The notes: generated by a model not told the origin, from the letters alone. A DNA stretch of 58,409 bases from Elusimicrobiota bacterium (GCA_012517285.1 JAAYVG010000022.1:1-58409), one strand, 5' to 3'. Positions 4,611 to 40,053 are shown, counted from the stretch's first letter. Numbers and translations: made by a program.

Positions 4611-7600
4611 ATGATCAAGTTTTTTATTGCATTACTGACATCATTAAATCTAAACGCTTCAAGCTTTAAGGAGCAGAGAACAAATAAAATCTCACCCCTT
4701 GCAGACACCATGATATCGATTGAAAAACAGAAGCAAGCCACATCACAGAAAACCATATCAACAATGTCTATCAGAAAAAATAAGTTTAAAGCTTTCAATG
4801 AGACCAATTCTAAAAAGAAGAACTGGAGCATCAGAATGAGCTCATATGGCATCCCAAAGCTTTTGAGTGGGGACAGAACAAAAAGATATTATGGAACACC
4901 TGAGGGGATATTTAACACATTTATAACCGAAAATAAGGATATGTTGGGTATTGATATTAATAATCTAAAATTAACCACACAATCACAATTTTTAAACACA
5001 AAGCATCTTTATTATCAGCAGTATTATAAAAACATACCTGTTGAGTTTTCTTATGTAAAACTGCATCTAACTGATAATGGTGAGATAACTCAATATAACG
5101 CAAAATATTATCCTGATATAAACATTGATATCAATCCAAAGACAACAATGGAACAAGCAAGGTTTGCTATATCATCAGAGCTTGGATCTTTTTCAGTTTC
5201 AACTTCAACGCTTGTCATATATCCTGATGAGTTGAACAACAGATATTATTTAGCATGGAAAATAGAGATAAATGGCGGGAATGGGAGTATGAATGGTAAC
5301 TGGGTATATTATATAAACTCTGATAACAACAGCATACTCTTCAAATATGATAAAAGGCAGTACAGCTGTAATCTTCAAGAAGAGACAAACGGAACAGTTA
5401 AAGGAATGGTGTATGATATATCACCAGTGCCAGAAGGAGCAGATAATGGTCCGTATTATTGGGTTCCAAAGATACAAGCTCCGATATCAGATCAGTATGT
5501 TTTTGCCGGTGGACTCTTGAAATCTACAACTACAAAATCTGATGGAGAATACTGTATAAACTACGGAGAGGGTGATGAGGGAGCTAAGGTGTTTATGACT
5601 ACTATGGGACCTTATTTTTCGGTTCTTAACTTCAGCGGACAGCCATACTTTTATACGAACGGTTTATATCAGTGGAGGACTACACCTACAAAGCTCAGTG
5701 TCCAGTCATATGATAACGATTCTACAATAACCTATGCTCTTTCACCATCATACTCAATAAATACCGGAGAAGCCCTTGCTTACACTGGACCACTCTTTGA
5801 TACCCTTAATATTGGAGAGGTTGATAACTGCAGCAATCCAATAGACAATGATATGATTTTTGTTCTTGACTCAAACAACAATGCTGTATCCACTTTTTTT
5901 GGCAAGGACAAAAGCAACATCTTCGGCGGTCTTATACCAGATCAGTCATACAAAATAAAAATAAAATCAGACCAGTCATTATCAGGAAATTTTATAATAA
6001 ACTATTCAAGCTACGTGGTTCTTACAAATCCAGCGGGAAAGGGTAATGGGAACGTAACATTTGAAACACCTGATAATGGAACATCCATAAATGTATTTTA
6101 TCATCTAAACAGGATAAGAAATTTTATGATGAAGTTTAACTCCAAGTGTGGAGGGATAGGGTGTATTGATCTTAACAAAAGGGTCTCTATTATGTCTCAG
6201 GTTTATGGAGATAAAGCCACAGGTGATTGCTATCAACCAAATACGATGTGGAATGCATTTTATGATCTGGATCATGATGCAATATTCTATGGTAAGGGAA
6301 TTGAGATGGGAGGTTATTATAAGGACTTTGGTCTTGATGGAACTGTAGTAAGGCACGAATACGGTCATCTGGTTATGAACAGGATATACCCAATAATATA
6401 CTTTGGAGAATTTGGAGCAATATCTGAGGCTATAAGCGACTATTTTTCACTATCATCCTTCTGGGATGAGGGTAAGACGCTTACAATGCTTGGTAATTTT
6501 ATAGGAACAGGTGAGGGAGTTACAAGGGATCTTTCAACTATAACAAAAAAAATGCCTGATGATTGGGCTGGTGAGGTTCACGATGATGGCATGATACTAT
6601 CAGGAGCACTCTATAAAATAAGAAAGGATCCGACATATTCTCTTGGTACAATAACATATGGTGGAGAACTGCTTAACAAGGCTGATCTTTATATCTTTGG
6701 AGCACTCTTTTATTTCCCTGATAACTTTGAAAATTTTCTTGAGGCATTGGTTGATACATGCAAACAGATCAATGGAACATGTTCTGATGAAAGCAAAATA
6801 CGAACTGCTTTCAGCGAGCATGGCATTGGATCACAATCAGTATCAGACATACATGAACCAAACAATGGACCTGAGTATGCCACTGACATATCCACATTCA
6901 ATACAATACAGGCCTATATAGATTATAATGGTGATGAGGATTATTATGCACTTACATTGAATGAGGGATTGTTCCATGCAAGGCTTTATCTACCTGATTC
7001 CCAACAATATCATGGTTTTTACCATGCATATAATATGTTTCTTTTTGATAGTTATAGAAAATATGTAACAGATATATCGCCAGTAGTAGTACCAGCTCTA
7101 TGCTACTCGGAGAATGTGCCTGACCACTGCTTTACAAGAAATAATTATGTTGATCTCTACTATTCAGTGACAAAGCCACAGATATACTATATTGCTGTAA
7201 CAGGTGGTGTAAATGGCTATTATAACAATGGCACTGATTTTAATTCACTCCTCCCATACACACTAAACTATGACCCTGACCTAAGATCATCAGTAAATGC
7301 AGAATCAGTGCTGAGCAAGTTTGATGAGGATGAAATTGAATTTAGTGTTAAGGTGCCAAAATTTGAGTATTTAAATGATCTCACTCATAATTGGGACCTA
7401 GGAAGTGAGTTTGAGTTCTGTGAATTAGGCTGTATAAAAATATTGGATAATAATTTAAATGAACTATCAACTAATTATATAACGGTAACTCCTTCCGATG
7501 GCTCAAGCTATAACTCATATGACACCACAGGCAATCCTGTGATAAAGGGTAAGATAAAATTTCAGTCCTATGCCGGAAAAACATTTTCCCAAAGGTATCC

Positions 7601-7985
7601 TGCTGTTGGAACAATATATTTAAAGTTATATGCAAATAATCATATGTCAGGAATTACAGGAGATACATTTAACCTTGGGACTTCAAACCCTATCAATTTA
7701 ACAGCCAATTCAAATTCATTTATATCATACAACAATATAATAAACTCTAATAATGCGACTATGACACTAAAGTATGAAACAAAGGAAGCATCAAATATTA
7801 AGATTTATGTTTATACTGCAACTGGGCAACTTGTAAAAAAAATATATGAAGGACAGGGTTATGGAAAGATGAGTTTTAGCTGGGATGGGACTGATGATAG
7901 CGGCAAAAAGCTTTCAAGCGGCATATACTATATAAAAACAGAAGGAGCAGTTAATAAGGTAGAAAAGGTTGCAATAGTTAGATAA
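4611..7985 (+). CDS. Secreted M4-type zinc metalloprotease with FlgD-like C-terminal domain
   Basis: 1124 residues with a short signal peptide (1-17). An FTP-type propeptide (about 85-160) precedes the catalytic domain. Zinc site: His582-Glu-Tyr-Gly-His586, then Glu606 in GAISEAISDYF, the 20-residue spacing of thermolysin. VHDDGMILSGALY around His657 matches the M4 proton-donor His. A PPC-like domain starts near 745 (EPNN, then GDEDYY). The last 78 residues (about 1047-1124) form a FlgD-Ig-like domain with IKIYVYTATGQLV, SWDGTDDSGK and SSGIYYIK, closely resembling the end of the giant protein at 32656-40053. Likely secreted and surface-attached through that domain. A PorV-like gene follows directly. 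Confidence 0.9.
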   Translation: MIKFFIALLTSLNLNASSFKEQRTNKISPLADTMISIEKQKQATSQKTISTMSIRKNKFKAFNETNSKKKNWSIRMSSYGIPKLLSGDRTKRYYGTPEGIFNTFITENKDMLGIDINNLKLTTQSQFLNTKHLYYQQYYKNIPVEFSYVKLHLTDNGEITQYNAKYYPDINIDINPKTTMEQARFAISSELGSFSVSTSTLVIYPDELNNRYYLAWKIEINGGNGSMNGNWVYYINSDNNSILFKYDKRQYSCNLQEETNGTVKGMVYDISPVPEGADNGPYYWVPKIQAPISDQYVFAGGLLKSTTTKSDGEYCINYGEGDEGAKVFMTTMGPYFSVLNFSGQPYFYTNGLYQWRTTPTKLSVQSYDNDSTITYALSPSYSINTGEALAYTGPLFDTLNIGEVDNCSNPIDNDMIFVLDSNNNAVSTFFGKDKSNIFGGLIPDQSYKIKIKSDQSLSGNFIINYSSYVVLTNPAGKGNGNVTFETPDNGTSINVFYHLNRIRNFMMKFNSKCGGIGCIDLNKRVSIMSQVYGDKATGDCYQPNTMWNAFYDLDHDAIFYGKGIEMGGYYKDFGLDGTVVRHEYGHLVMNRIYPIIYFGEFGAISEAISDYFSLSSFWDEGKTLTMLGNFIGTGEGVTRDLSTITKKMPDDWAGEVHDDGMILSGALYKIRKDPTYSLGTITYGGELLNKADLYIFGALFYFPDNFENFLEALVDTCKQINGTCSDESKIRTAFSEHGIGSQSVSDIHEPNNGPEYATDISTFNTIQAYIDYNGDEDYYALTLNEGLFHARLYLPDSQQYHGFYHAYNMFLFDSYRKYVTDISPVVVPALCYSENVPDHCFTRNNYVDLYYSVTKPQIYYIAVTGGVNGYYNNGTDFNSLLPYTLNYDPDLRSSVNAESVLSKFDEDEIEFSVKVPKFEYLNDLTHNWDLGSEFEFCELGCIKILDNNLNELSTNYITVTPSDGSSYNSYDTTGNPVIKGKIKFQSYAGKTFSQRYPAVGTIYLKLYANNHMSGITGDTFNLGTSNPINLTANSNSFISYNNIINSNNATMTLKYETKEASNIKIYVYTATGQLVKKIYEGQGYGKMSFSWDGTDDSGKKLSSGIYYIKTEGAVNKVEKVAIVR

Positions 7986-8060
7986 GTTAGTTATTTAGTT
8001 ATCTGGTTATTTAGGAAGAAATGGAATTTGGTTATTTAGTTGTCTGGTTGTTTAGGAAGA
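7985..8060. repeat. GTTATTTGGTTGT-type intergenic repeat between protease and barrel genes
   Basis: Degenerate tandem units of the type GTTATTTAGTTATCTGG and TTAGGAAGAA. The same family occurs at 9278-9330, 15552-15596, 26176-26215, 31285-31316, 31456-31484, 41880-41940, 41998-42024, 43632-43716 and 43816-43838. The AGGAAGAAG end lies just before the barrel start at 8069 and may serve as its RBS. Confidence 0.6.
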
Positions 8061-8068
8061 AGAAGCAT

Positions 8069-9175
8069 ATGAAAAAAAAGAGAAATAAAATAAGGATATA
8101 CAGCGGAATATTTTTTTTAATTATATTCAATAATAAGTTGTTTTCTAACTCTTCACTTGACATATTAAAAAATGATGTTAGTGCCGGTGTGCTTGGGATA
8201 TCAGGAGCGTATGCTGTAACAAATGCTGATATATTTTCAACAAACTATAATCCTGCTACACTTGGGTTGCTTGATAGGATGCAGATAGGTGGAAACTATT
8301 CTAATGGCTTTGAGGATGCAAAATACTCATACATAGCCTACGGCATGCCCCTGCCATTTAAAGCGATTTCAAATATATCAAACCCTTATATGGCTATATC
8401 CATATATGCAAGCAATTTAGGTGACTTTACATATAGACAATTATCATCAGATGGTATTGTATCAGAAAAATCTATGGATGCTGAGAAGGATACGGTTATA
8501 ACCCTTGCATATGGAGAAAAGGTTGATTCACAGACAGTATATATATCGCCATCAGTCAAATCAAAGTTTGAGAGCAGCATTGGCGTAGCTGTTAAGTTCA
8601 TAAACTCAAAGCTTCTTGATAAATACTCAGCTAATACAATAGCCCTTGACGCAGGATATTACGGAAGTTTTACAGATTTAGGACTTGATTTTGGAGCATC
8701 TATATCAAATATGCTTGGTAGCATAAAATACATCAGCGAAAAAGAGGATCTACCATCAACACTTCGAGTAGGATTATCTTATTCAAAACCTACCATAATG
8801 GATCAGAGGTTTAAGGTTGCAGCAGAGTTTAATAGATATATAAGTGATAAGGACAACTCACTTTCTGCAGGAATAGAATACACATTGGAGAATATGTTTA
8901 TATTCAGAAGCGGATACAGATTTCTTTCAGACAATAAAGGTTTTTCAGCCGGTGTCGGGCTTTTTGCAGGAGATTTTACCATAGATGTTGCCACAGTATT
9001 TTATGATGTTTATAAGTACAGCTCCGTTTCAATAAAATACTCATTTGGTAAATCATATCAGTCAGATAAAAATGAAAAAAAAGAGCTCAAAAAATTCATA
9101 AAAACAAAGGAAGAAGAAAAATCAAGGCCAGTTCCACCATCCAAAACAACAAAGGATCAGATAATTATATTTTAA
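8069..9175 (+). CDS. PorV/PorQ-like outer-membrane beta-barrel protein
   Basis: 368 residues from the ATG at 8069. The longer frame from 8021 would add 16 residues encoded by the intergenic repeat. A signal peptide is followed by GVLGISGAYAVTNADIFSTN and YNPATLGLL, the start typical of the PorV/PorQ (UPF0164-like) family: a conserved G-A-Y-A and an N-P-A-x-L. Many short amphipathic strands follow, ending near SIKYSFGKSY. Unlike the paralogue at 31570-32511, it then has a Lys/Glu-rich tail with PVPPSK. In type IX secretion PorV shuttles cargo across the outer membrane. Placement straight after a protease with a sorting-like C-terminal domain supports a related role, which is inferred. Confidence 0.75.
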   Translation: MKKKRNKIRIYSGIFFLIIFNNKLFSNSSLDILKNDVSAGVLGISGAYAVTNADIFSTNYNPATLGLLDRMQIGGNYSNGFEDAKYSYIAYGMPLPFKAISNISNPYMAISIYASNLGDFTYRQLSSDGIVSEKSMDAEKDTVITLAYGEKVDSQTVYISPSVKSKFESSIGVAVKFINSKLLDKYSANTIALDAGYYGSFTDLGLDFGASISNMLGSIKYISEKEDLPSTLRVGLSYSKPTIMDQRFKVAAEFNRYISDKDNSLSAGIEYTLENMFIFRSGYRFLSDNKGFSAGVGLFAGDFTIDVATVFYDVYKYSSVSIKYSFGKSYQSDKNEKKELKKFIKTKEEEKSRPVPPSKTTKDQIIIF

Positions 9176-31569: not shown

Positions 31570-32511
31570 TCAAAAGCCAAACTGAATATCAAATCTGTTT
31601 ATATTTCCAAGTTCACCAAACGGGACATATGCATAATTAAAGCTGACATCCTTTGCAATTATACCAAAACCACAGGCAAAGCCAACCATAGAACCTAAGT
31701 TGGATGTATCATAACCAAACTTATAACCAGTTCTCAAAACAAAGCTATCGCCTAAAAAATACTCAGCTCCTATGGATGGATAAAACTTTTCATCGTGAAC
31801 AAACTCTTCAACCTCTGCAACAAGGTTTGCATTTTTAATACTATAAGAAAAACCTGCTTTTATGCTTAATGGTATGTTATCACTCTCGGATTCATACTTC
31901 ATCTTTGTACCCAAGTTTAAAAGAGCAAATGATATATTTATATGATTTAGATAGTGATAAAGCAACCCAAGATCTAATGCTATAGATTGTGCAGATGAGT
32001 CATCTATCTTGGAATTAATAAACTTAAGCGATGCACCAGCACTTAGATTTTCAATAATATTTGGTGCAAAATCCTTTTTCGCATATGAGAATATAAACTC
32101 CATATCTGTTGAATCAAAACTTCCCTCAGATGGAACTATTCCAACAGCATCATTAGTCCTTCTTTCTATTGAATCTATGTTAAAGCCTGCAAACCCAAAT
32201 CCTATATCAGCATCCCTTAATTTAGTCTTGTATGAAAGTATTCCTAACTTTGAATCCTCAAGATATGTTGTAAAACCAAGCCCAAGCTCTTTATCCCTTG
32301 CAGAGGTTATGCCAGCAGGATTTGAAAAAATAGAATATGAATCATTGCCAATAGCACTGTATGCACCAGCAAGTGCTGCCTGCCTTGATGAATATGAAAA
32401 TTTTAGAAAGTTTGCAGCAGTTGTTCCCTCACCGCCATAACAATAAACACTTATTGAAATCATAGAGATAGCAAGCAGTAAGATATATTTTAATTTACAA
32501 AACGATTTCAT
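31570..32511 (-). CDS. PorV/PorQ-like outer-membrane beta-barrel protein, second paralogue
   Basis: 313 residues. A signal peptide (about 1-25) is followed by GTTAANFLKFSYSSRQAALAGAYSAIG and SIFSNPAGI, the conserved family start (R-x-A-A-L-A-G-A-Y and N-P-A-G). The body alternates Gly and aromatic residues in short strands and ends in NRFDIQFGF with a terminal Phe. In type IX secretion PorV is the outer-membrane shuttle that collects cargo with C-terminal sorting domains. It lies immediately downstream of the giant FlgD-domain protein, the same order as the pair at 4611-9175. The role in cargo transfer is inferred. An RBS GGAGG lies before the ATG. Confidence 0.78.
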   Translation of the reverse strand: MKSFCKLKYILLLAISMISISVYCYGGEGTTAANFLKFSYSSRQAALAGAYSAIGNDSYSIFSNPAGITSARDKELGLGFTTYLEDSKLGILSYKTKLRDADIGFGFAGFNIDSIERRTNDAVGIVPSEGSFDSTDMEFIFSYAKKDFAPNIIENLSAGASLKFINSKIDDSSAQSIALDLGLLYHYLNHINISFALLNLGTKMKYESESDNIPLSIKAGFSYSIKNANLVAEVEEFVHDEKFYPSIGAEYFLGDSFVLRTGYKFGYDTSNLGSMVGFACGFGIIAKDVSFNYAYVPFGELGNINRFDIQFGF

Positions 32512-32655: not shown

Positions 32656-35600
32656 TCACTTTATAATTGCCATCTTATGGACTCCACCTATCTTATCACC
32701 ATTTATATAAGCTATCAAGAAATAAACTCCACTTGCACACTTTTCATTCTTGTCATTCCTTCCATCCCACTCTGAGTAATAAACATATCCACCATCCCTT
32801 ATTCCTTCTTCAAGTGTTCTTACCTTTTCACCTGCTGTGTTATAAATAACCAGCTTTACATTTCCTTTTTTACCAGCAGGAAGGTGATATTTTATTACAG
32901 TTCCATAAGTGGTATAGTTTCCCGTAGTCCAGCTTCCACCATCAGAGCTTATGTTGACAACCTTTGACTTAAGGTTAAATGGGTTTGGGATGTTATATAT
33001 TTCAAAACCACTGCCAGTATAAACTGTTCCTGTTGGTGGCTTTGATACAAAGACAGCAAATCTACCGGTTTGAGGCGATGATGATGACTGAGGGACAAAT
33101 CCGCCATCCTTTGCCATAGCGCTCATCCCTAATTTTTTCCTACCGAAAGGAGTTGTCGTATCAGGATTTTTTTCATATGCCTTTGACAGACTCACCACAT
33201 CAACAGAGACTGTGCCAAGCATCGGATCTACCGTATATGTTCCAGAAACCTCAACCCATTGTCCCGATTCCTCATTATACTGATATATTTTTAGGTTGTT
33301 TGTATCCTGAATAACCCTTTCTTTATCATATTTAAGTGTAAGTGTAAAGGCCCTGTTTGGCTCCGCGTTTGATATATCAAGGTCATAAACATCAGATGCC
33401 ATAACATTGCTTATAGCATCACTCAAACTCATCTCACCCTTAGGTGTTTTAACATTTCTAATTGATGGAAGTGCTGAGAAGAAACCACCAATCAGCTCTC
33501 CACCACCAACGCTCATAACCTTTACCTTAGAGCTTATATTAGCTGATGATGTTGCTGTTGATTTTGTAAATGCCCCCGGGTCAAGTTCAATACCACTGTA
33601 CTCCTCATTATCAGAATCCATATATATATTTCCACCTATATATATCTCATCAGATATATAATTCTCAGACGCAATATCATTTTTGACATCATAGTTTATA
33701 ATCTTTTCTATCTTATCAACATCCCCAGCAGTTATCCTCAATGTATAATATGGGACAAGCTTTGATACATTGAAACGACCTATATATGTATTGCCCGGTG
33801 ATTTAACAAGTGCAAGTTGAACTGAGTTATTATTATCAAAGCTGTTGCTGTCATATTTACCGGCAACATACTCACATACAGGAACTGTTAGAAGCTCCTT
33901 AGGACTTTTTATATTAACCTCAAGCGATGATTTATCCCTCCTGAGCTTTACATTTATTTGTGGCGGTATATCCACAAAAACTATATCATCGGCAACACTG
34001 CCAGATGAAAGTGCTTTAACGAGAATGCTCTGAGTCATCTTTCCAGGATATGTTGCAACAATTCTATAGGTGTGGTTTGCCTCAACACCCTTTATCTCAT
34101 AACTGCCATCATCCCCTGTTAGTGTTTCAATCTTAGGAACATAGCTTACTCCCGATGTGCTCCTTGTCTCATCATATGCAACTACACTCACACCTGAGGT
34201 TACAAAGGTGTTAGGAAACTTTGATATATAAACCTTACCTGTGATTGAAGAAGCAGATTTATTAAGTTTAAAATCAAAGGTTATATCTTCGCTCTGGTTC
34301 ACAGAAAATTTCTTACCATCGCTCACATATCCATCCTTTGAAAGAGACATTCTGTAAAGTCCAGGTGGTAGATTGTCAAAGGAATATCTTCCATTATTAT
34401 CACTATAAACAGTTTTTTCAAAGGTTTTATGTGTTATATAAACAGCAACACCACTGAGAGGATTAGAGTCATTATCAGTAATGGTACCACTCAGCTTTGA
34501 TATTGAAATACCTGCTGAGTCAAAATCAAAATCAAAGACAGTGTTACCGTTTACTGTTATCTCTTTTGTAACAGCAGGATAGTTAGGACTCAAAAAAACT
34601 GCTGTATAACTACCATTAGGTAGATTTGGTATATAATATGAGGATGAATCTATAAAAATATCATAGATAGTCTGAGAGCTTTTAGATACAACGGCTGACA
34701 TAAAACTCTGATAAGACTCCCCATCATCCATAAGAGAATGAGACAGCCCTCTCAACTCACCGCTTGCATCATATAACATTACATAAGGGATTAATGATAT
34801 AAGTTTATCCAGACTATTAGTTTGAAAGAGAGTATCAAAATCCTTCTGAGTTAATATATTTTTACCAGTAATCCTTCCTGTAAGTGATGATTTTCCTATG
34901 CTTCCATACAGATTGAAATCACTAATAGGTTGAGCAGATATTCCAAACAATGGATTTGAAGAGTCCTTCTGTATAACTTTGTTTTTTTCCTTTCCTATAA
35001 AGTTAACAAAACTTCTAAATGATATTGGGGAATTATCATGAGACTCAGGATTAAAACTTGAACCCAGTGCCAGATAAAAATCATACTTTCCCTGAGTTAA
35101 ATATTTTGGTTCAAAATATGATGTAGCTGTATCATAATCTATTATATATTTTGCGCTTGAATCCTTGCCAAAAAGAATATCAGTAATATTCTTACCCTTC
35201 ATCTCAAATCCAGATGGCATGCTCAAAATAATATAATAATATGTTGTATCTGGCAGGCTTGTAATAGCAGGCTGAACCACAACCCCATCCTGCATCTTAA
35301 TCCTTACATCAGTAGTTTTGCCCACAACGACAGAAACATTTTCCACAGACGAAACAGGATACCCATCTGTTTCCAATGAAAGGTTGTATAAGCCATTTGG
35401 AACAGATAATTCCAGTATAGGATCATCATTTTGATTAAAGATGAAGTTTGTGTCACGATCATATGATTTATCATATGAATTAATATAAACCTTTGGAGGC
35501 TCACAGCCTTCATAATTACACTTCGGCATAAATACACTGCCATCAGGTTTAACCACACTTATTTTTAGTTTACCAGCTCTTGTAAGCATAAGACTTGCAG

Positions 35601-38600
35601 TAGATGTATTACCTTGTGTAAAATCTATATCCCCCAGAGCACTTCTCCTCGCCCACTTGTCAGATATCACATCACACCAATATCTCTTTCCACCTGTAAG
35701 TTTAATATTATATGATGTCGTTCCTGAAATAAGACCCGCTGGTAGTTTAACAAGCCTTTGGACACCAACACCGTCATAACTATCTTCTGATATTAAAATA
35801 GTAGCATCCGTATCAGTAGCACCAACCTCGTCATAACTTACATTAAGTGTTAAGTTAGCATCTTCCGTTATCGGGTTAGCAAAATCAAATGTATATGGAG
35901 AAATTCCTTTGCAAGCACCAGAGCTATCAAGAACCCATACCCTTCCAGCAGTGCATGGATTATTAGGCGGATATGATGGCGATTTGGCACCTGAGCTTGA
36001 TATAACTATTCTGATATCATCATCAGTTCTATATTCATTATCAGCACCAAAATTTATATTCTTATACATAGGATCCATAGTATATAATCCAACATTACCA
36101 TCCTTAAGCCCATCTATCTTAAAATATCCGCTCGAATCAGTAACAAAATAGCTGTTAATCCATGACATCGTATAGTTGCCAGAAGGAGCATAGCTGTCAT
36201 CACCTGTGAAATTAAAGTTGTTGCTATCATAACCACCTGCTTGAACCTTTACACCAGAAAGTGGAATACCATTATATGTTATATAACCTGATATGGTATA
36301 TGTTGCCGGCATTAAAACGTAGGTCATATTATATGAAGATGGTAGGTAAGCCATATTCCATATATCTATATAACCCTTCTTTGTTATGTTAAGCTGAACA
36401 TTGTTATAGCCTATATCAGATGTAGAGTTATAGAAACTGAACTTACCATTGACATCAGTATATTGAACAGAATCAAAATTACCGGTGGAGATCTCAACCC
36501 TCGCATTTGATACAGGATTATTAAGAGTGTCTACAACTATACCACTCAGTATCGCAATGCTCTGCTTTGTCTGGTCATTATAGCTACCGCCCGAGACCAC
36601 AGCAGATGAAAAATCCATATAATAATCTGCAGTGGCTGCACAGGTTGATGGAAACTCTGAATAAACTATATCGGTCTTTGATAGTATTCCAGGTATTGAT
36701 ACATCTATCTTATATTTACCAGTTGATAGCTTCGGAACATTATATATGTCAACTGTTACGAGAGTATCTGTTGCCTTTACAAAATTAAGTGATATTATTT
36801 CATTTGTCCCCAATGTTATTAATGATACACTCAAAGGATAACCCGGTTTAACATTGTTAACCACAGCCCTGAAGGTATATGTTGAAGTATTAATTGATGA
36901 AAATGAATAATTAAGCGTTGTATCAGAATTAAATGCTTTTAAAAATCTCTGATATGGATCTGCAACCTGCTGCTTAACTGTTGGTGAAAATCTTGATGTT
37001 GATATCGAGATGATATAAGGCACATTATTAAGAACCCTTGATGTAATCTTTCCAGATGAGTCAGTCATCCCTGCAAATTTTATCTTACCAATATCAACTG
37101 TCCCAGTTTCTGAAGGAATGAATGATACATAGGCATTGCTCAAAGGAGCATTGGATGTACTTGTAACAACCATATTAACCGTTGAGGTGTTATCTCGAAG
37201 AATATCGTTTATCTTTTTCTTTTCTATTTTTCCATTTGATGTGGATGCAATTCCTGAAAGCTGTTTTATATCACTAACAAAATAAATAGAATCTCCATCA
37301 TTTATAGCTGACTGATATATTATATTGTTGCTTTTATCCTCAGTATAAATAAAAATGGAAGTGATATCAAGAGTCTCGGTATCTAACTTTATAAAAAATG
37401 GGATCCTGTTTGATATTGAGTCCGAAACCTTCTGCATGTCTCCACCAACAATAAGATATTGGTTATCCTTTGTTAAAAGTATATTCTTTATTTCCTCATT
37501 CTTTCCCAGATTAAAGAGCTTTGAATCAACAAGATTAAGTGTTGCCGAATCATATTTCAAAACAAATCCATAGTTATCAGAGCCATTGTTTGAATATCCT
37601 GATATATAAAAGTTATCACCTAACTTTAATATATCAGTAAATTTATCATAGCTTACTGCACCAGGAGAATTAAATGTTACTATGCTCTGTGAACTCAGAT
37701 CATCCGATATTCTTGCTATAAATCCATCAGTTGAGCTATCGGTTTTGACATAATAACCAACTGCGTATATATAATCATCGTCAACAAAGCCCTTTACGAA
37801 CTGAGTGGAAACACCATCCTGTACTGATATCTCTTTTAATGATGATATCAAACCATTTTTAAATTTTATTACACTGAACTCACCATTATCATCACTAAAT
37901 ACATAATCCGCACCATTTTTAACATAGAGTCTGAGTTTTTCTGGCATATCATCATAATTAAGTGTGTCTATTATATGATTTTCAACAATGTCGTATCTGG
38001 AGTTTATAGTTGCAAAAAAAAGATTATAATTATCATCATATATCCTTGATGATGCGACTACCTCAAAGTTACCATTATTACCAGAAATAGCGTCATAGAT
38101 ATATACATCACGTGGCATAAGTGAATTTGACATATCGGCTGCTGTTGATAACCTTGCAAAAAAACCACCCCCATCATCATTTGTTGCAATAATTGCAATT
38201 GTTGAGCCATTAATTATCAGTCTTTTATCAAACTCTTCATAAGGCATCTCCATATATATCTCACCTTGATCTAATGAACCAGAAAAACCCCTAACTACAA
38301 TTAACTGATTTGGATAACTAACTGGCAGACCAACTGCTTCTTTACCTTTAGTATCCTTGGCTGAAAATTTATAATAATGCTGCGGTACACTGCTTTCAAG
38401 AGAGCCAGAGGGTAAAAAGTATGAAAAAAGGGCAGAAACCCCGTCAGAAGAATAATTCCAACCTTCTTCAAGTTTCATATCATAAGAAATTGAATCAATT
38501 ATAACCTTTATCTCAGATGTCGTATCACCATCAAGATCGTTATATTCCACATAAAATGTAGCTCCCTCGGACAAAGCAATGACCTTGTCATTTATGCCAT

Positions 38601-40053
38601 TCTCAAAATTCTGAGGAAATGTAAGTATAGGAGCTCTATTTTCTGTAGCATTGACATTTGTAAGCTTCAATGTCCTTATATCGTTATCACAACCAAAGCT
38701 CTTACAGTAATATGTATCGCCTGTAACATAAACAGAACTTCCGCTAATACTATATGTTGAATCCATCTTTCTTATATAATCATTGCTACCGGTATCAATT
38801 GTATATCTGTTAAAAACCTTAAATGTATCAGTAGAAATTGTTAAAACTGAATAGTTAAAATTATTTGTTGCTGGGTTATAAGGATTGCACCCGAAAGCAA
38901 TAAAGCCATCAGTAACAGAAAATGTGTATAGAGAGGATAAGGAAGAAATGATTGATGATGAAACAAAACTATCAAAATTATCTAACCCATACTTATAAAT
39001 ACTCACGGTTGGTGACGATAATGCAATAGCAAAGATGTTTGAGCTGTTAGCAGCAAATTTAAATATGCCTGTTCCTAAATCTTCAAGTTTAGTTATTGTA
39101 TGATTATGTATATCATTTAGCATTGATGTTGATATATAATTATTACCATAATCATCAGTAAGAAATACATAAAGCTTATCAGTTGCGATTATATCACCGC
39201 AGAAATATGATGAAGGAGGTAACGTAGTAAAGGTTAAGGAATCACTCAAGGAAAGATTAGAATCTATCTTTACTATAGTTGCATTAGGGTTCTGAACACA
39301 GCCATAGAGGTAGTCTCCAGCAACTGCTAATGACCTAAGATCTGAATTTGAAAATGTTGATGAGGATATAAAATTCAAATCCATATCATACTTTGACACT
39401 ATAGTTGAAGGAGAACCAATCCCATTTTTATTACCAGCGGCATATATATATTCACCTTCAACTACGAGTGATTTAAAAGAATCCTCACTCTTATCACTGA
39501 CTATCACGGGTGAATGGGATGTATCCTGTGGGGAAAGCAATACTCCCTCAGCAGAGTATTTTAATATATAGGTATAAGGATAGTTGGTTGCAAGTATATA
39601 AACATTATCACCAGCATATTTTATATCAATAACATTATCATATCCTTGTTGACCAAAAACTGCACCAGAAGAGGAAGATATATCAAAACTGCCAAGAGAT
39701 ATCTGCGGTATAGATTGATATAAAACAAAATCGAGTGTTACATCCTCTTCTGAAAGAACGTTAACATTATTTTTATCAACAGTATAATAACCTGGTGCCG
39801 AAACCCTTACAGTATAGCTTCCCTCTGTGATATTTTCCATCAAAGCCACTCCAGAAGTATTAGTTATGGCTGAGGATATAACTAGATTAGCATTATCCAA
39901 ATCCAATAACTCAATTAGTGCATTGACCACAGGCTCTTCATCAGTCTTTTTAACATTAATATTTATTGTACCAGCCAAAAGCGTTAAACTTGTGCTGCCA
40001 AATATAATAACCAATAATAAAATCTTGTTTATTTTATTAATTATCTTCTTCAT
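32656..40053 (-). CDS. Giant secreted protein with repeated carboxypeptidase-regulatory-like domains and FlgD-like C-terminal domain
   Basis: 2465 residues with a signal peptide (about 1-27). Carboxypeptidase-regulatory/CnaB-like beta-sandwiches occur near 28-112, 953-1030, 1169-1330 (two copies), 1494-1570 and 1854-2030 (two). A typical one reads SGTITDNDSNPLSGVAVYIT, then GRYSFDNLPPGLY. Residues about 115-470 and 590-950 are built of repeated V-x-G-x-x-I-Y-A-x-G units, likely beta-propellers. A D-x-D-G-D cadherin/PKD-like stretch starts near 471. The last 80 residues (about 2384-2465) form a FlgD-Ig-like domain: VKLVIYNTAGEKV, then SEWDGRNDKNE, then ASGVYFL. Probably a surface adhesin or matrix protein; no catalytic site seen. 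Confidence 0.85.
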   Translation of the reverse strand: MKKIINKINKILLLVIIFGSTSLTLLAGTININVKKTDEEPVVNALIELLDLDNANLVISSAITNTSGVALMENITEGSYTVRVSAPGYYTVDKNNVNVLSEEDVTLDFVLYQSIPQISLGSFDISSSSGAVFGQQGYDNVIDIKYAGDNVYILATNYPYTYILKYSAEGVLLSPQDTSHSPVIVSDKSEDSFKSLVVEGEYIYAAGNKNGIGSPSTIVSKYDMDLNFISSSTFSNSDLRSLAVAGDYLYGCVQNPNATIVKIDSNLSLSDSLTFTTLPPSSYFCGDIIATDKLYVFLTDDYGNNYISTSMLNDIHNHTITKLEDLGTGIFKFAANSSNIFAIALSSPTVSIYKYGLDNFDSFVSSSIISSLSSLYTFSVTDGFIAFGCNPYNPATNNFNYSVLTISTDTFKVFNRYTIDTGSNDYIRKMDSTYSISGSSVYVTGDTYYCKSFGCDNDIRTLKLTNVNATENRAPILTFPQNFENGINDKVIALSEGATFYVEYNDLDGDTTSEIKVIIDSISYDMKLEEGWNYSSDGVSALFSYFLPSGSLESSVPQHYYKFSAKDTKGKEAVGLPVSYPNQLIVVRGFSGSLDQGEIYMEMPYEEFDKRLIINGSTIAIIATNDDGGGFFARLSTAADMSNSLMPRDVYIYDAISGNNGNFEVVASSRIYDDNYNLFFATINSRYDIVENHIIDTLNYDDMPEKLRLYVKNGADYVFSDDNGEFSVIKFKNGLISSLKEISVQDGVSTQFVKGFVDDDYIYAVGYYVKTDSSTDGFIARISDDLSSQSIVTFNSPGAVSYDKFTDILKLGDNFYISGYSNNGSDNYGFVLKYDSATLNLVDSKLFNLGKNEEIKNILLTKDNQYLIVGGDMQKVSDSISNRIPFFIKLDTETLDITSIFIYTEDKSNNIIYQSAINDGDSIYFVSDIKQLSGIASTSNGKIEKKKINDILRDNTSTVNMVVTSTSNAPLSNAYVSFIPSETGTVDIGKIKFAGMTDSSGKITSRVLNNVPYIISISTSRFSPTVKQQVADPYQRFLKAFNSDTTLNYSFSSINTSTYTFRAVVNNVKPGYPLSVSLITLGTNEIISLNFVKATDTLVTVDIYNVPKLSTGKYKIDVSIPGILSKTDIVYSEFPSTCAATADYYMDFSSAVVSGGSYNDQTKQSIAILSGIVVDTLNNPVSNARVEISTGNFDSVQYTDVNGKFSFYNSTSDIGYNNVQLNITKKGYIDIWNMAYLPSSYNMTYVLMPATYTISGYITYNGIPLSGVKVQAGGYDSNNFNFTGDDSYAPSGNYTMSWINSYFVTDSSGYFKIDGLKDGNVGLYTMDPMYKNINFGADNEYRTDDDIRIVISSSGAKSPSYPPNNPCTAGRVWVLDSSGACKGISPYTFDFANPITEDANLTLNVSYDEVGATDTDATILISEDSYDGVGVQRLVKLPAGLISGTTSYNIKLTGGKRYWCDVISDKWARRSALGDIDFTQGNTSTASLMLTRAGKLKISVVKPDGSVFMPKCNYEGCEPPKVYINSYDKSYDRDTNFIFNQNDDPILELSVPNGLYNLSLETDGYPVSSVENVSVVVGKTTDVRIKMQDGVVVQPAITSLPDTTYYYIILSMPSGFEMKGKNITDILFGKDSSAKYIIDYDTATSYFEPKYLTQGKYDFYLALGSSFNPESHDNSPISFRSFVNFIGKEKNKVIQKDSSNPLFGISAQPISDFNLYGSIGKSSLTGRITGKNILTQKDFDTLFQTNSLDKLISLIPYVMLYDASGELRGLSHSLMDDGESYQSFMSAVVSKSSQTIYDIFIDSSSYYIPNLPNGSYTAVFLSPNYPAVTKEITVNGNTVFDFDFDSAGISISKLSGTITDNDSNPLSGVAVYITHKTFEKTVYSDNNGRYSFDNLPPGLYRMSLSKDGYVSDGKKFSVNQSEDITFDFKLNKSASSITGKVYISKFPNTFVTSGVSVVAYDETRSTSGVSYVPKIETLTGDDGSYEIKGVEANHTYRIVATYPGKMTQSILVKALSSGSVADDIVFVDIPPQINVKLRRDKSSLEVNIKSPKELLTVPVCEYVAGKYDSNSFDNNNSVQLALVKSPGNTYIGRFNVSKLVPYYTLRITAGDVDKIEKIINYDVKNDIASENYISDEIYIGGNIYMDSDNEEYSGIELDPGAFTKSTATSSANISSKVKVMSVGGGELIGGFFSALPSIRNVKTPKGEMSLSDAISNVMASDVYDLDISNAEPNRAFTLTLKYDKERVIQDTNNLKIYQYNEESGQWVEVSGTYTVDPMLGTVSVDVVSLSKAYEKNPDTTTPFGRKKLGMSAMAKDGGFVPQSSSSPQTGRFAVFVSKPPTGTVYTGSGFEIYNIPNPFNLKSKVVNISSDGGSWTTGNYTTYGTVIKYHLPAGKKGNVKLVIYNTAGEKVRTLEEGIRDGGYVYYSEWDGRNDKNEKCASGVYFLIAYINGDKIGGVHKMAIIK

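What the first reader, a model, noticed from the sequence alone, without database searches (positions are those of the whole stretch)
4611..9175. Cargo-plus-barrel pair: M4 protease with FlgD-like tail followed by a PorV-like protein
The protease ends in a FlgD-Ig-like domain and is followed on the same strand by a PorV/PorQ-like barrel. The giant protein at 32656-40053 ends in a similar domain and is also followed by a PorV-like paralogue. The two C-termini share the IY-x-x-(A)-G, (S)WDG, SG-(I/V)-Y and K-x-AI-(V/I)-(R/K) pattern. Two copies of the same ordered pair in 40 kb suggest a modular type-IX-like secretion system in which each barrel serves its neighbour's cargo.
Basis: partly seen in the sequence, partly recalled or inferred. 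Interest (0 to 1): 0.78.

Follow-up and report, generated by a model that had tools for sequence, protein, structure and literature searches.

The report
One dedicated export barrel per cargo
This bacterium of the little-studied phylum Elusimicrobiota appears to carry a distant version of a protein-export machine (type IX secretion) reported until now only from Bacteroidota and their relatives, and next to almost every exported protein it keeps a private outer-membrane barrel that probably picks that protein up and holds it on the cell surface.

Summary
The window lies in an Elusimicrobiota genome. Both pairs exist: M4-like protease + barrel, and 2465-aa protein + barrel. In this genome 9 of 11 PorV-family barrels directly follow a gene whose protein ends in such a domain; in eight genomes 83 of 117 do (same strand, gap up to 464 nt), never in reverse order or on opposite strands. 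The 'FlgD-like' tails are type IX sorting domains, closest to the uncleaved tails of PorZ and PorU. The barrels match PorV by profile and by predicted fold, well ahead of FadL. Within one genus of reduced genomes, SprA and the barrels are lost together. No PorU, GldL or GldM was found by profile. Best reading: a type-IX-like system in which an uncleaved cargo tail stays on its own PorV/PorQ-type barrel, so each cargo carries one. Nothing in the papers I could search describes this. Not shown: biochemical specificity, retention of the tail, and the energy source.

The parts
4611..7985 (+). Cargo 1: secreted M4-like metalloprotease, 1124 aa, signal peptide (by eye), FTP propeptide, HEYGH site
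   Evidence: orthologues of 1148-1197 aa with HExxH in five other genomes of the family
7653..7982 (+). Type IX-like C-terminal sorting domain of cargo 1
   Evidence: FlgD_ig 6.8e-13, PorZ 1.3e-6, PorU 1.3e-6, TIGR04183 8.8e-6 (25.6 bits, over its cut-off of 23)
8021..9175 (+). Dedicated barrel 1: PorV/PorQ-family outer-membrane protein; true start probably 8069; C-terminal helix and hydrophobic tail
   Evidence: PorV_fam 7.3e-28; AlphaFold pLDDT 91.8; best PDB folds are PorV (8gl6_F, 6h3i_F)
32656..40053 (-). Cargo 2: 2465-aa secreted protein with carboxypeptidase-regulatory-like repeats
   Evidence: relatives of 2516 and 3953 aa with a matching neighbour barrel
32659..32982 (-). Type IX-like C-terminal sorting domain of cargo 2
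   Evidence: (E=3e-26 with profile A2, which includes it)
31570..32511 (-). Dedicated barrel 2: PorV/PorQ-family protein, closest to PorQ
   Evidence: PorV_fam 1.5e-46, PorQ 7.6e-38, PorV 2e-17

Best explanation
The window holds two of at least nine cargo-plus-shuttle modules of a divergent type IX secretion system. Proposed order of events: the cargo crosses the inner membrane by Sec (signal peptide; inferred), enters the SprA-like barrel encoded elsewhere in the genome (C32), and presents its C-terminal sorting domain. Its own co-encoded PorV/PorQ-family barrel docks at the SprA side opening, binds the domain and draws the cargo out (inferred from the SprA-PorV structures). Shown here: gene order, homology of tail, barrel and translocon, co-inheritance, joint loss with SprA. 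Inferred: direction of transport, specificity, retention, and an unidentified energy source.
For: 83 of 117 barrels lie directly behind a tail-bearing gene, none in reverse order or on opposite strands; three more with a better profile, and four more in the same operon two genes on. SprA-like protein: TIGR04189 E=2.6e-36 over 5 stretches; family profile finds F. johnsoniae SprA in PDB at 2e-18, collinear; the 1190-aa predicted fold matches only SprA strongly (7.5e-36, next protein 2e-6). Barrel: PDB profile best is PorV 9.5e-42 against TodX 8e-9, and fold. Tail: 59 of 60 match PorZ, 56 type A TIGR04183, 51 PorU; PDB best are PorZ and PorU. Tail and barrel distances correlate, r=0.73 against a null maximum of 0.17. 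Joint loss with SprA in one genus. Four barrels carry a fused OmpA domain, a family known to bind peptidoglycan, as expected of an anchor. Literature: PorU and PorZ tails are not cleaved and are held by PorV and PorQ (PMC11285876, PMC5562754); type B cargo needs its own adjacent shuttle (PMC12618676).
Against: GldL and GldM were not found, so the energy source known to drive type IX transport is missing or unrecognised. About a quarter of the barrels have no tail-bearing gene nearby, and some tail-bearing genes have no barrel. Once close relatives are removed the tail-barrel correlation is weak (r=0.18-0.35, p=0.0002-0.04), so co-inheritance as a unit explains most of it. A conserved C11 peptidase beside a PorQ-like barrel could be a sortase, which would undermine the no-cleavage step. 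G046 keeps two barrels without a detected SprA.
Confidence: 0.72

Rival explanations
1. The same type-IX-like system, but with interchangeable shuttles: any barrel can serve any tail, and each barrel sits beside a cargo only to match expression levels.
For: PorV in Bacteroidota serves many cargos; crosstalk between related type B tails and shuttles is reported (PMC12618676). After removing close relatives the tail-barrel correlation is weak. Orphan tail-bearing genes exist.
Against: Within-genome correlation of tails and barrels exceeds all shuffles in 83 pairs and is significant in each genome tested; a single shared barrel would need no repeated co-duplication.
Confidence: 0.17
2. Tails are removed by a different sortase, for example the C11 clostripain-like protease encoded next to a PorQ-like barrel, so the system works like PorU-PorV with a substitute enzyme.
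For: The C11-barrel pair is conserved in five genomes of the family. PorU (C25) belongs, from general knowledge, to the same clan CD. One relative has a caspase-family domain fused to the barrel.
Against: The C11 protein has no sorting domain of its own, unlike PorU. The tails resemble those of PorZ and PorU, which are not cleaved. C11 distribution beyond one family was not tested.
Confidence: 0.15
3. The barrels are FadL-like uptake channels and the cargos their surface enzymes, co-transcribed for nutrient use; there is no secretion pairing.
For: The PorV family belongs to the FadL superfamily, and FadL/TodX are the next-best folds.
Against: PorV is far ahead of FadL by profile and fold; tails are C-terminal type IX signals; cargos are largely unrelated to each other outside the tail and shared Ig-like repeats; the barrels vanish with SprA.
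Confidence: 0.05

Closest known systems
Type B CTD cargo with PorP/SprF shuttles (Flavobacterium johnsoniae, Porphyromonas gingivalis)
   Same: Cargo gene followed directly by the gene of its own shuttle/anchor barrel; secretion through SprA; tail not cleaved (PMC12618676, PMC9143113).
   Different: Here the tails are type A-like (PorZ/PorU-like) rather than TIGR04131, and the barrels are PorV/PorQ family.
PorZ-PorQ and PorU-PorV attachment complex (P. gingivalis)
   Same: An uncleaved type A-like tail held on a PorV-family barrel in about 1:1 ratio (PMC5562754); nearest sequence relatives of tails and, for several barrels, of barrels.
   Different: There they are two fixed machine parts; here the arrangement is repeated for many different cargos and no C25 sortase was found.
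SprA/Sov translocon (TIGR04189)
   Same: Collinear profile match and predicted fold.
   Different: About 1765 aa against 2403; 124 bits, below NCBI's cut-off of 200; outside the FCB superphylum.
FlgD Ig-like domain (PF13860)
   Same: Same Ig-like fold family; Pfam match.
   Different: PorZ/PorU and TIGR04183 tails match more of the 60 members; no hook context.

Membership tests
Type IX secretion system | SprA/Sov translocon | tested here: met
   Profile E=2.6e-36, PDB SprA 2e-18, fold 7.5e-36, though below NCBI's equivalog cut-off; 91 of 100 genomes
Type IX secretion system | Cargo with C-terminal sorting domain at the extreme C-terminus | tested here: met
   TIGR04183 in 56 of 60, PorZ in 59 of 60 at E<=0.01; domain ends within 16 residues of the stop in the 74 pairs from relatives
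Type IX secretion system | PorV-family shuttle | tested here: met
Type IX secretion system | PorL/PorM (GldL/GldM) motor | tested here: not met
   GldM 0 of 8; GldL only background E-values, with control genomes ringing at the same threshold; no positive control genome was at hand
Type IX secretion system | PorU C25 sortase | tested here: not met
   1 of 100 genomes of the phylum, which serves as positive control; own genome none
Type IX secretion system | PorK/PorN ring, PorW/SprE, PorT | not tested
Type IX secretion system | Loss of cargo secretion when SprA is removed | not testable with these tools
   needs an experiment; joint loss in reduced genomes is indirect support
PorV/PorQ family | NF033709 score over cut-off | tested here: met
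   Both window barrels over 90 bits (98.1, 159.5); below the PorV and PorQ equivalog cut-offs, so not assignable as orthologues of either
Type B CTD/SprF pairs | TIGR04131 tail | tested here: not met
   3 of 60 weakly

The most novel reading that the evidence does not exclude
A type IX branch outside the FCB superphylum that works without sortase and without the known GldLM motor, in which each cargo is drawn out and permanently displayed by its own PorV/PorQ barrel; single-PorV recycling by PorU would then be a Bacteroidota refinement of a one-barrel-per-cargo plan.
Probability: 0.35. Interest if true: 0.88.

Novelty: new variant of a known kind. Interest (0 to 1): 0.76.

Why it matters
A 2024 paper states that type IX genes are absent outside the FCB phyla (PMC11285876), and an older one found sorting-domain proteins in Poribacteria with no known machine to export them (PMC3909097). 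A SprA that standard Pfam scanning misses, present across Elusimicrobiota with a barrel for each cargo, suggests how such orphans could be exported. It also gives a natural set of dozens of tail-barrel couples for working out what makes a shuttle recognise its cargo, and a system in which display without sortase can be tested directly.

Tried and rejected
Pfam SprA_N in the own genome gave nothing; the translocon was found only because a 1765-aa ORF beside one pair looked like a giant barrel and was scanned with NCBIfam. Naming relatives through the barrel protein failed; Lon worked. The FlgD reading was dropped because PorZ/PorU and TIGR04183 tails match more members. GldL hits at E~0.01 were rejected because they are far below the cut-off and control genomes ring at the E<=1 threshold too. 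A claim of residue-level co-evolution was not made: correlation among distant pairs is weak. Complex prediction of tail plus barrel was not possible with the tools.

Full report
WHAT IS THERE. The window is a complete contig (C43, 58,409 bases) of a 1.96-Mb draft genome. A Lon protease from the same genome finds Elusimicrobiota as nearest relatives. Both reported pairs are real. The first cargo is a secreted M4-like metalloprotease with its HEYGH site; the second is a 2465-aa protein with carboxypeptidase-regulatory-like repeats. Each is followed directly, on the same strand, by a PorV/PorQ-family barrel.

IT IS A RULE. Searching the own genome with barrel and tail showed the same order at C47, C32, C5, C28, C35, C6 and C31. 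With a barrel profile (A1) and a tail profile (A2) over eight genomes of the phylum, 83 of 117 barrels follow a tail directly, with gaps of 0-464 nt; none lies in front of a tail and none on the opposite strand. Own genome: 9 of 11. Re-examining the remainder with better profiles added three direct pairs and four loci where cargo and barrel are two genes apart in the same order. What is left includes two conserved classes: a C11 peptidase followed by a PorQ-like barrel (own C29 and four relatives), and a barrel without an evident cargo (own C3 and relatives).

THE TAILS. Pfam calls them FlgD_ig, but of 60 tails 59 match the C-terminus of PorZ, 56 the type A sorting domain TIGR04183 and 51 PorU, against 40 for the best FlgD model in NCBIfam. 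Their profile finds PorZ (3.5e-15) and PorU (3.1e-9) first in the PDB, and also the translocon-bound tails 8glk_D and 8glj_D weakly. The glycine of the motif reported as essential (PMC11285876) corresponds, by position in the aligned PorZ/PorU stretch, to the invariant G of the tails, and a lysine near the end is kept in 67 of 83. PorZ and PorU tails are the uncleaved ones.

THE BARRELS. The profile of 82 barrels finds PorV in the PDB at 9.5e-42, FadL-type channels at 8e-9 or weaker. The window's first barrel was modelled at pLDDT 91.8 and its best structural matches are PorV. Some barrels in relatives carry C-terminal OmpA, TPR or CsgG-like domains.

THE TRANSLOCON. Pfam's SprA_N found nothing. 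A 1765-aa ORF three genes from the C32 pair matches TIGR04189 at 2.6e-36. Its family profile finds F. johnsoniae SprA at 2.1e-18 in collinear stretches, and the modelled C-terminal 1190 residues (pLDDT 79.6, pTM 0.50) match four SprA entries at 1e-30 or better, the next protein at 2e-6. Full-length relatives are in 91 of 100 genomes of the phylum, and all 41 near relatives searched have a match to the NCBI model. In 20 of 21 loci a gene family resembling LptF/LptG permeases lies beside it (name by eye).

LINKS BETWEEN THE PARTS. Tail distances and barrel distances over 83 pairs correlate at r=0.73; shuffling barrels within genomes gives at most 0.17 in 2000 trials; in the own genome alone r=0.50, p=0.009. 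The nearest relative of a tail and of its barrel in another genome belong to the same pair in 223 of 405 cases, 34 expected. With close relatives removed the correlation is weak, so this is chiefly inheritance as a unit. The protease pair is kept in all six genomes of the family tested, with HExxH in each. In genus g24, five genomes without SprA have no barrel above threshold except one decayed copy with two stops, while the five SprA-bearing ones searched have one to four. G046, of another genus, is an exception: two barrels, no SprA detected.

WHAT IS MISSING. C25 peptidase (PorU): none in the own genome, 1 of 100 in the phylum. GldM: none of 8. GldL: background only. PorK, PorN, PorT and PorW were not searched.

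MECHANISM. In F. johnsoniae the tail binds loops of PorV that reach into SprA, and PorV is then pulled away with the cargo (PMC10994853). One PorV can serve many cargos there; for type B tails, where shuttle and cargo must be made in equal amounts, shuttles are encoded next to the cargo. The present gene order fits the second plan carried out with first-plan parts. Without a sortase the tail stays on the barrel, as for PorZ on PorQ, and the barrel is spent. Retention is supported by the tail type, the missing PorU and the OmpA-fused barrels, but is not shown.

NOVELTY. Six text searches found no paper on type IX secretion in Elusimicrobiota; only open-licence papers were searched, so earlier reports elsewhere are possible, and curated models already exist that would label such genes 'PorV/PorQ family'. 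I rate it a new variant of a known kind.

Noticed in passing
L022:12648-15289 (own C29); L240, L241, L243, L244: A C11 clostripain-like peptidase gene is followed by a PorQ-like barrel in five genomes of the family; possible stand-in for PorU-PorV.
   Followed up: partly
G009:C11:39384, G012:C54:24874, G022:C35:268883, G001:C6:189638, G011:C10:32111: Tail-bearing open frames of 10,805 to 17,613 aa in relatives; three of them are directly followed by a barrel with a TPR-like extension (L199, L201, L202).
   Followed up: partly
L271:1616-2140 (own C47): Small proteins (about 174-220 aa), recurrent in relatives, that are little more than signal peptide plus sorting domain, most without an adjacent barrel.
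   Followed up: no
L208:1159-3402: A PorV-family barrel fused to a caspase-like (C14) domain.
   Followed up: no
window:8021-9175 and L154, L185, L188, L189, L190: Barrels of the protease pair end in a Lys/Pro-rich linker and a short hydrophobic tail (such as IIIF, FWIY), perhaps a docking peptide.
   Followed up: no
G052:C1:231638-232114: Decayed barrel with two stop codons in a reduced genome that lost SprA.
   Followed up: yes
window:9624-13080: Polysaccharide export genes (Wzz/GNVR and SLBB/Poly_export proteins) next to the protease pair, opposite strand.
   Followed up: no
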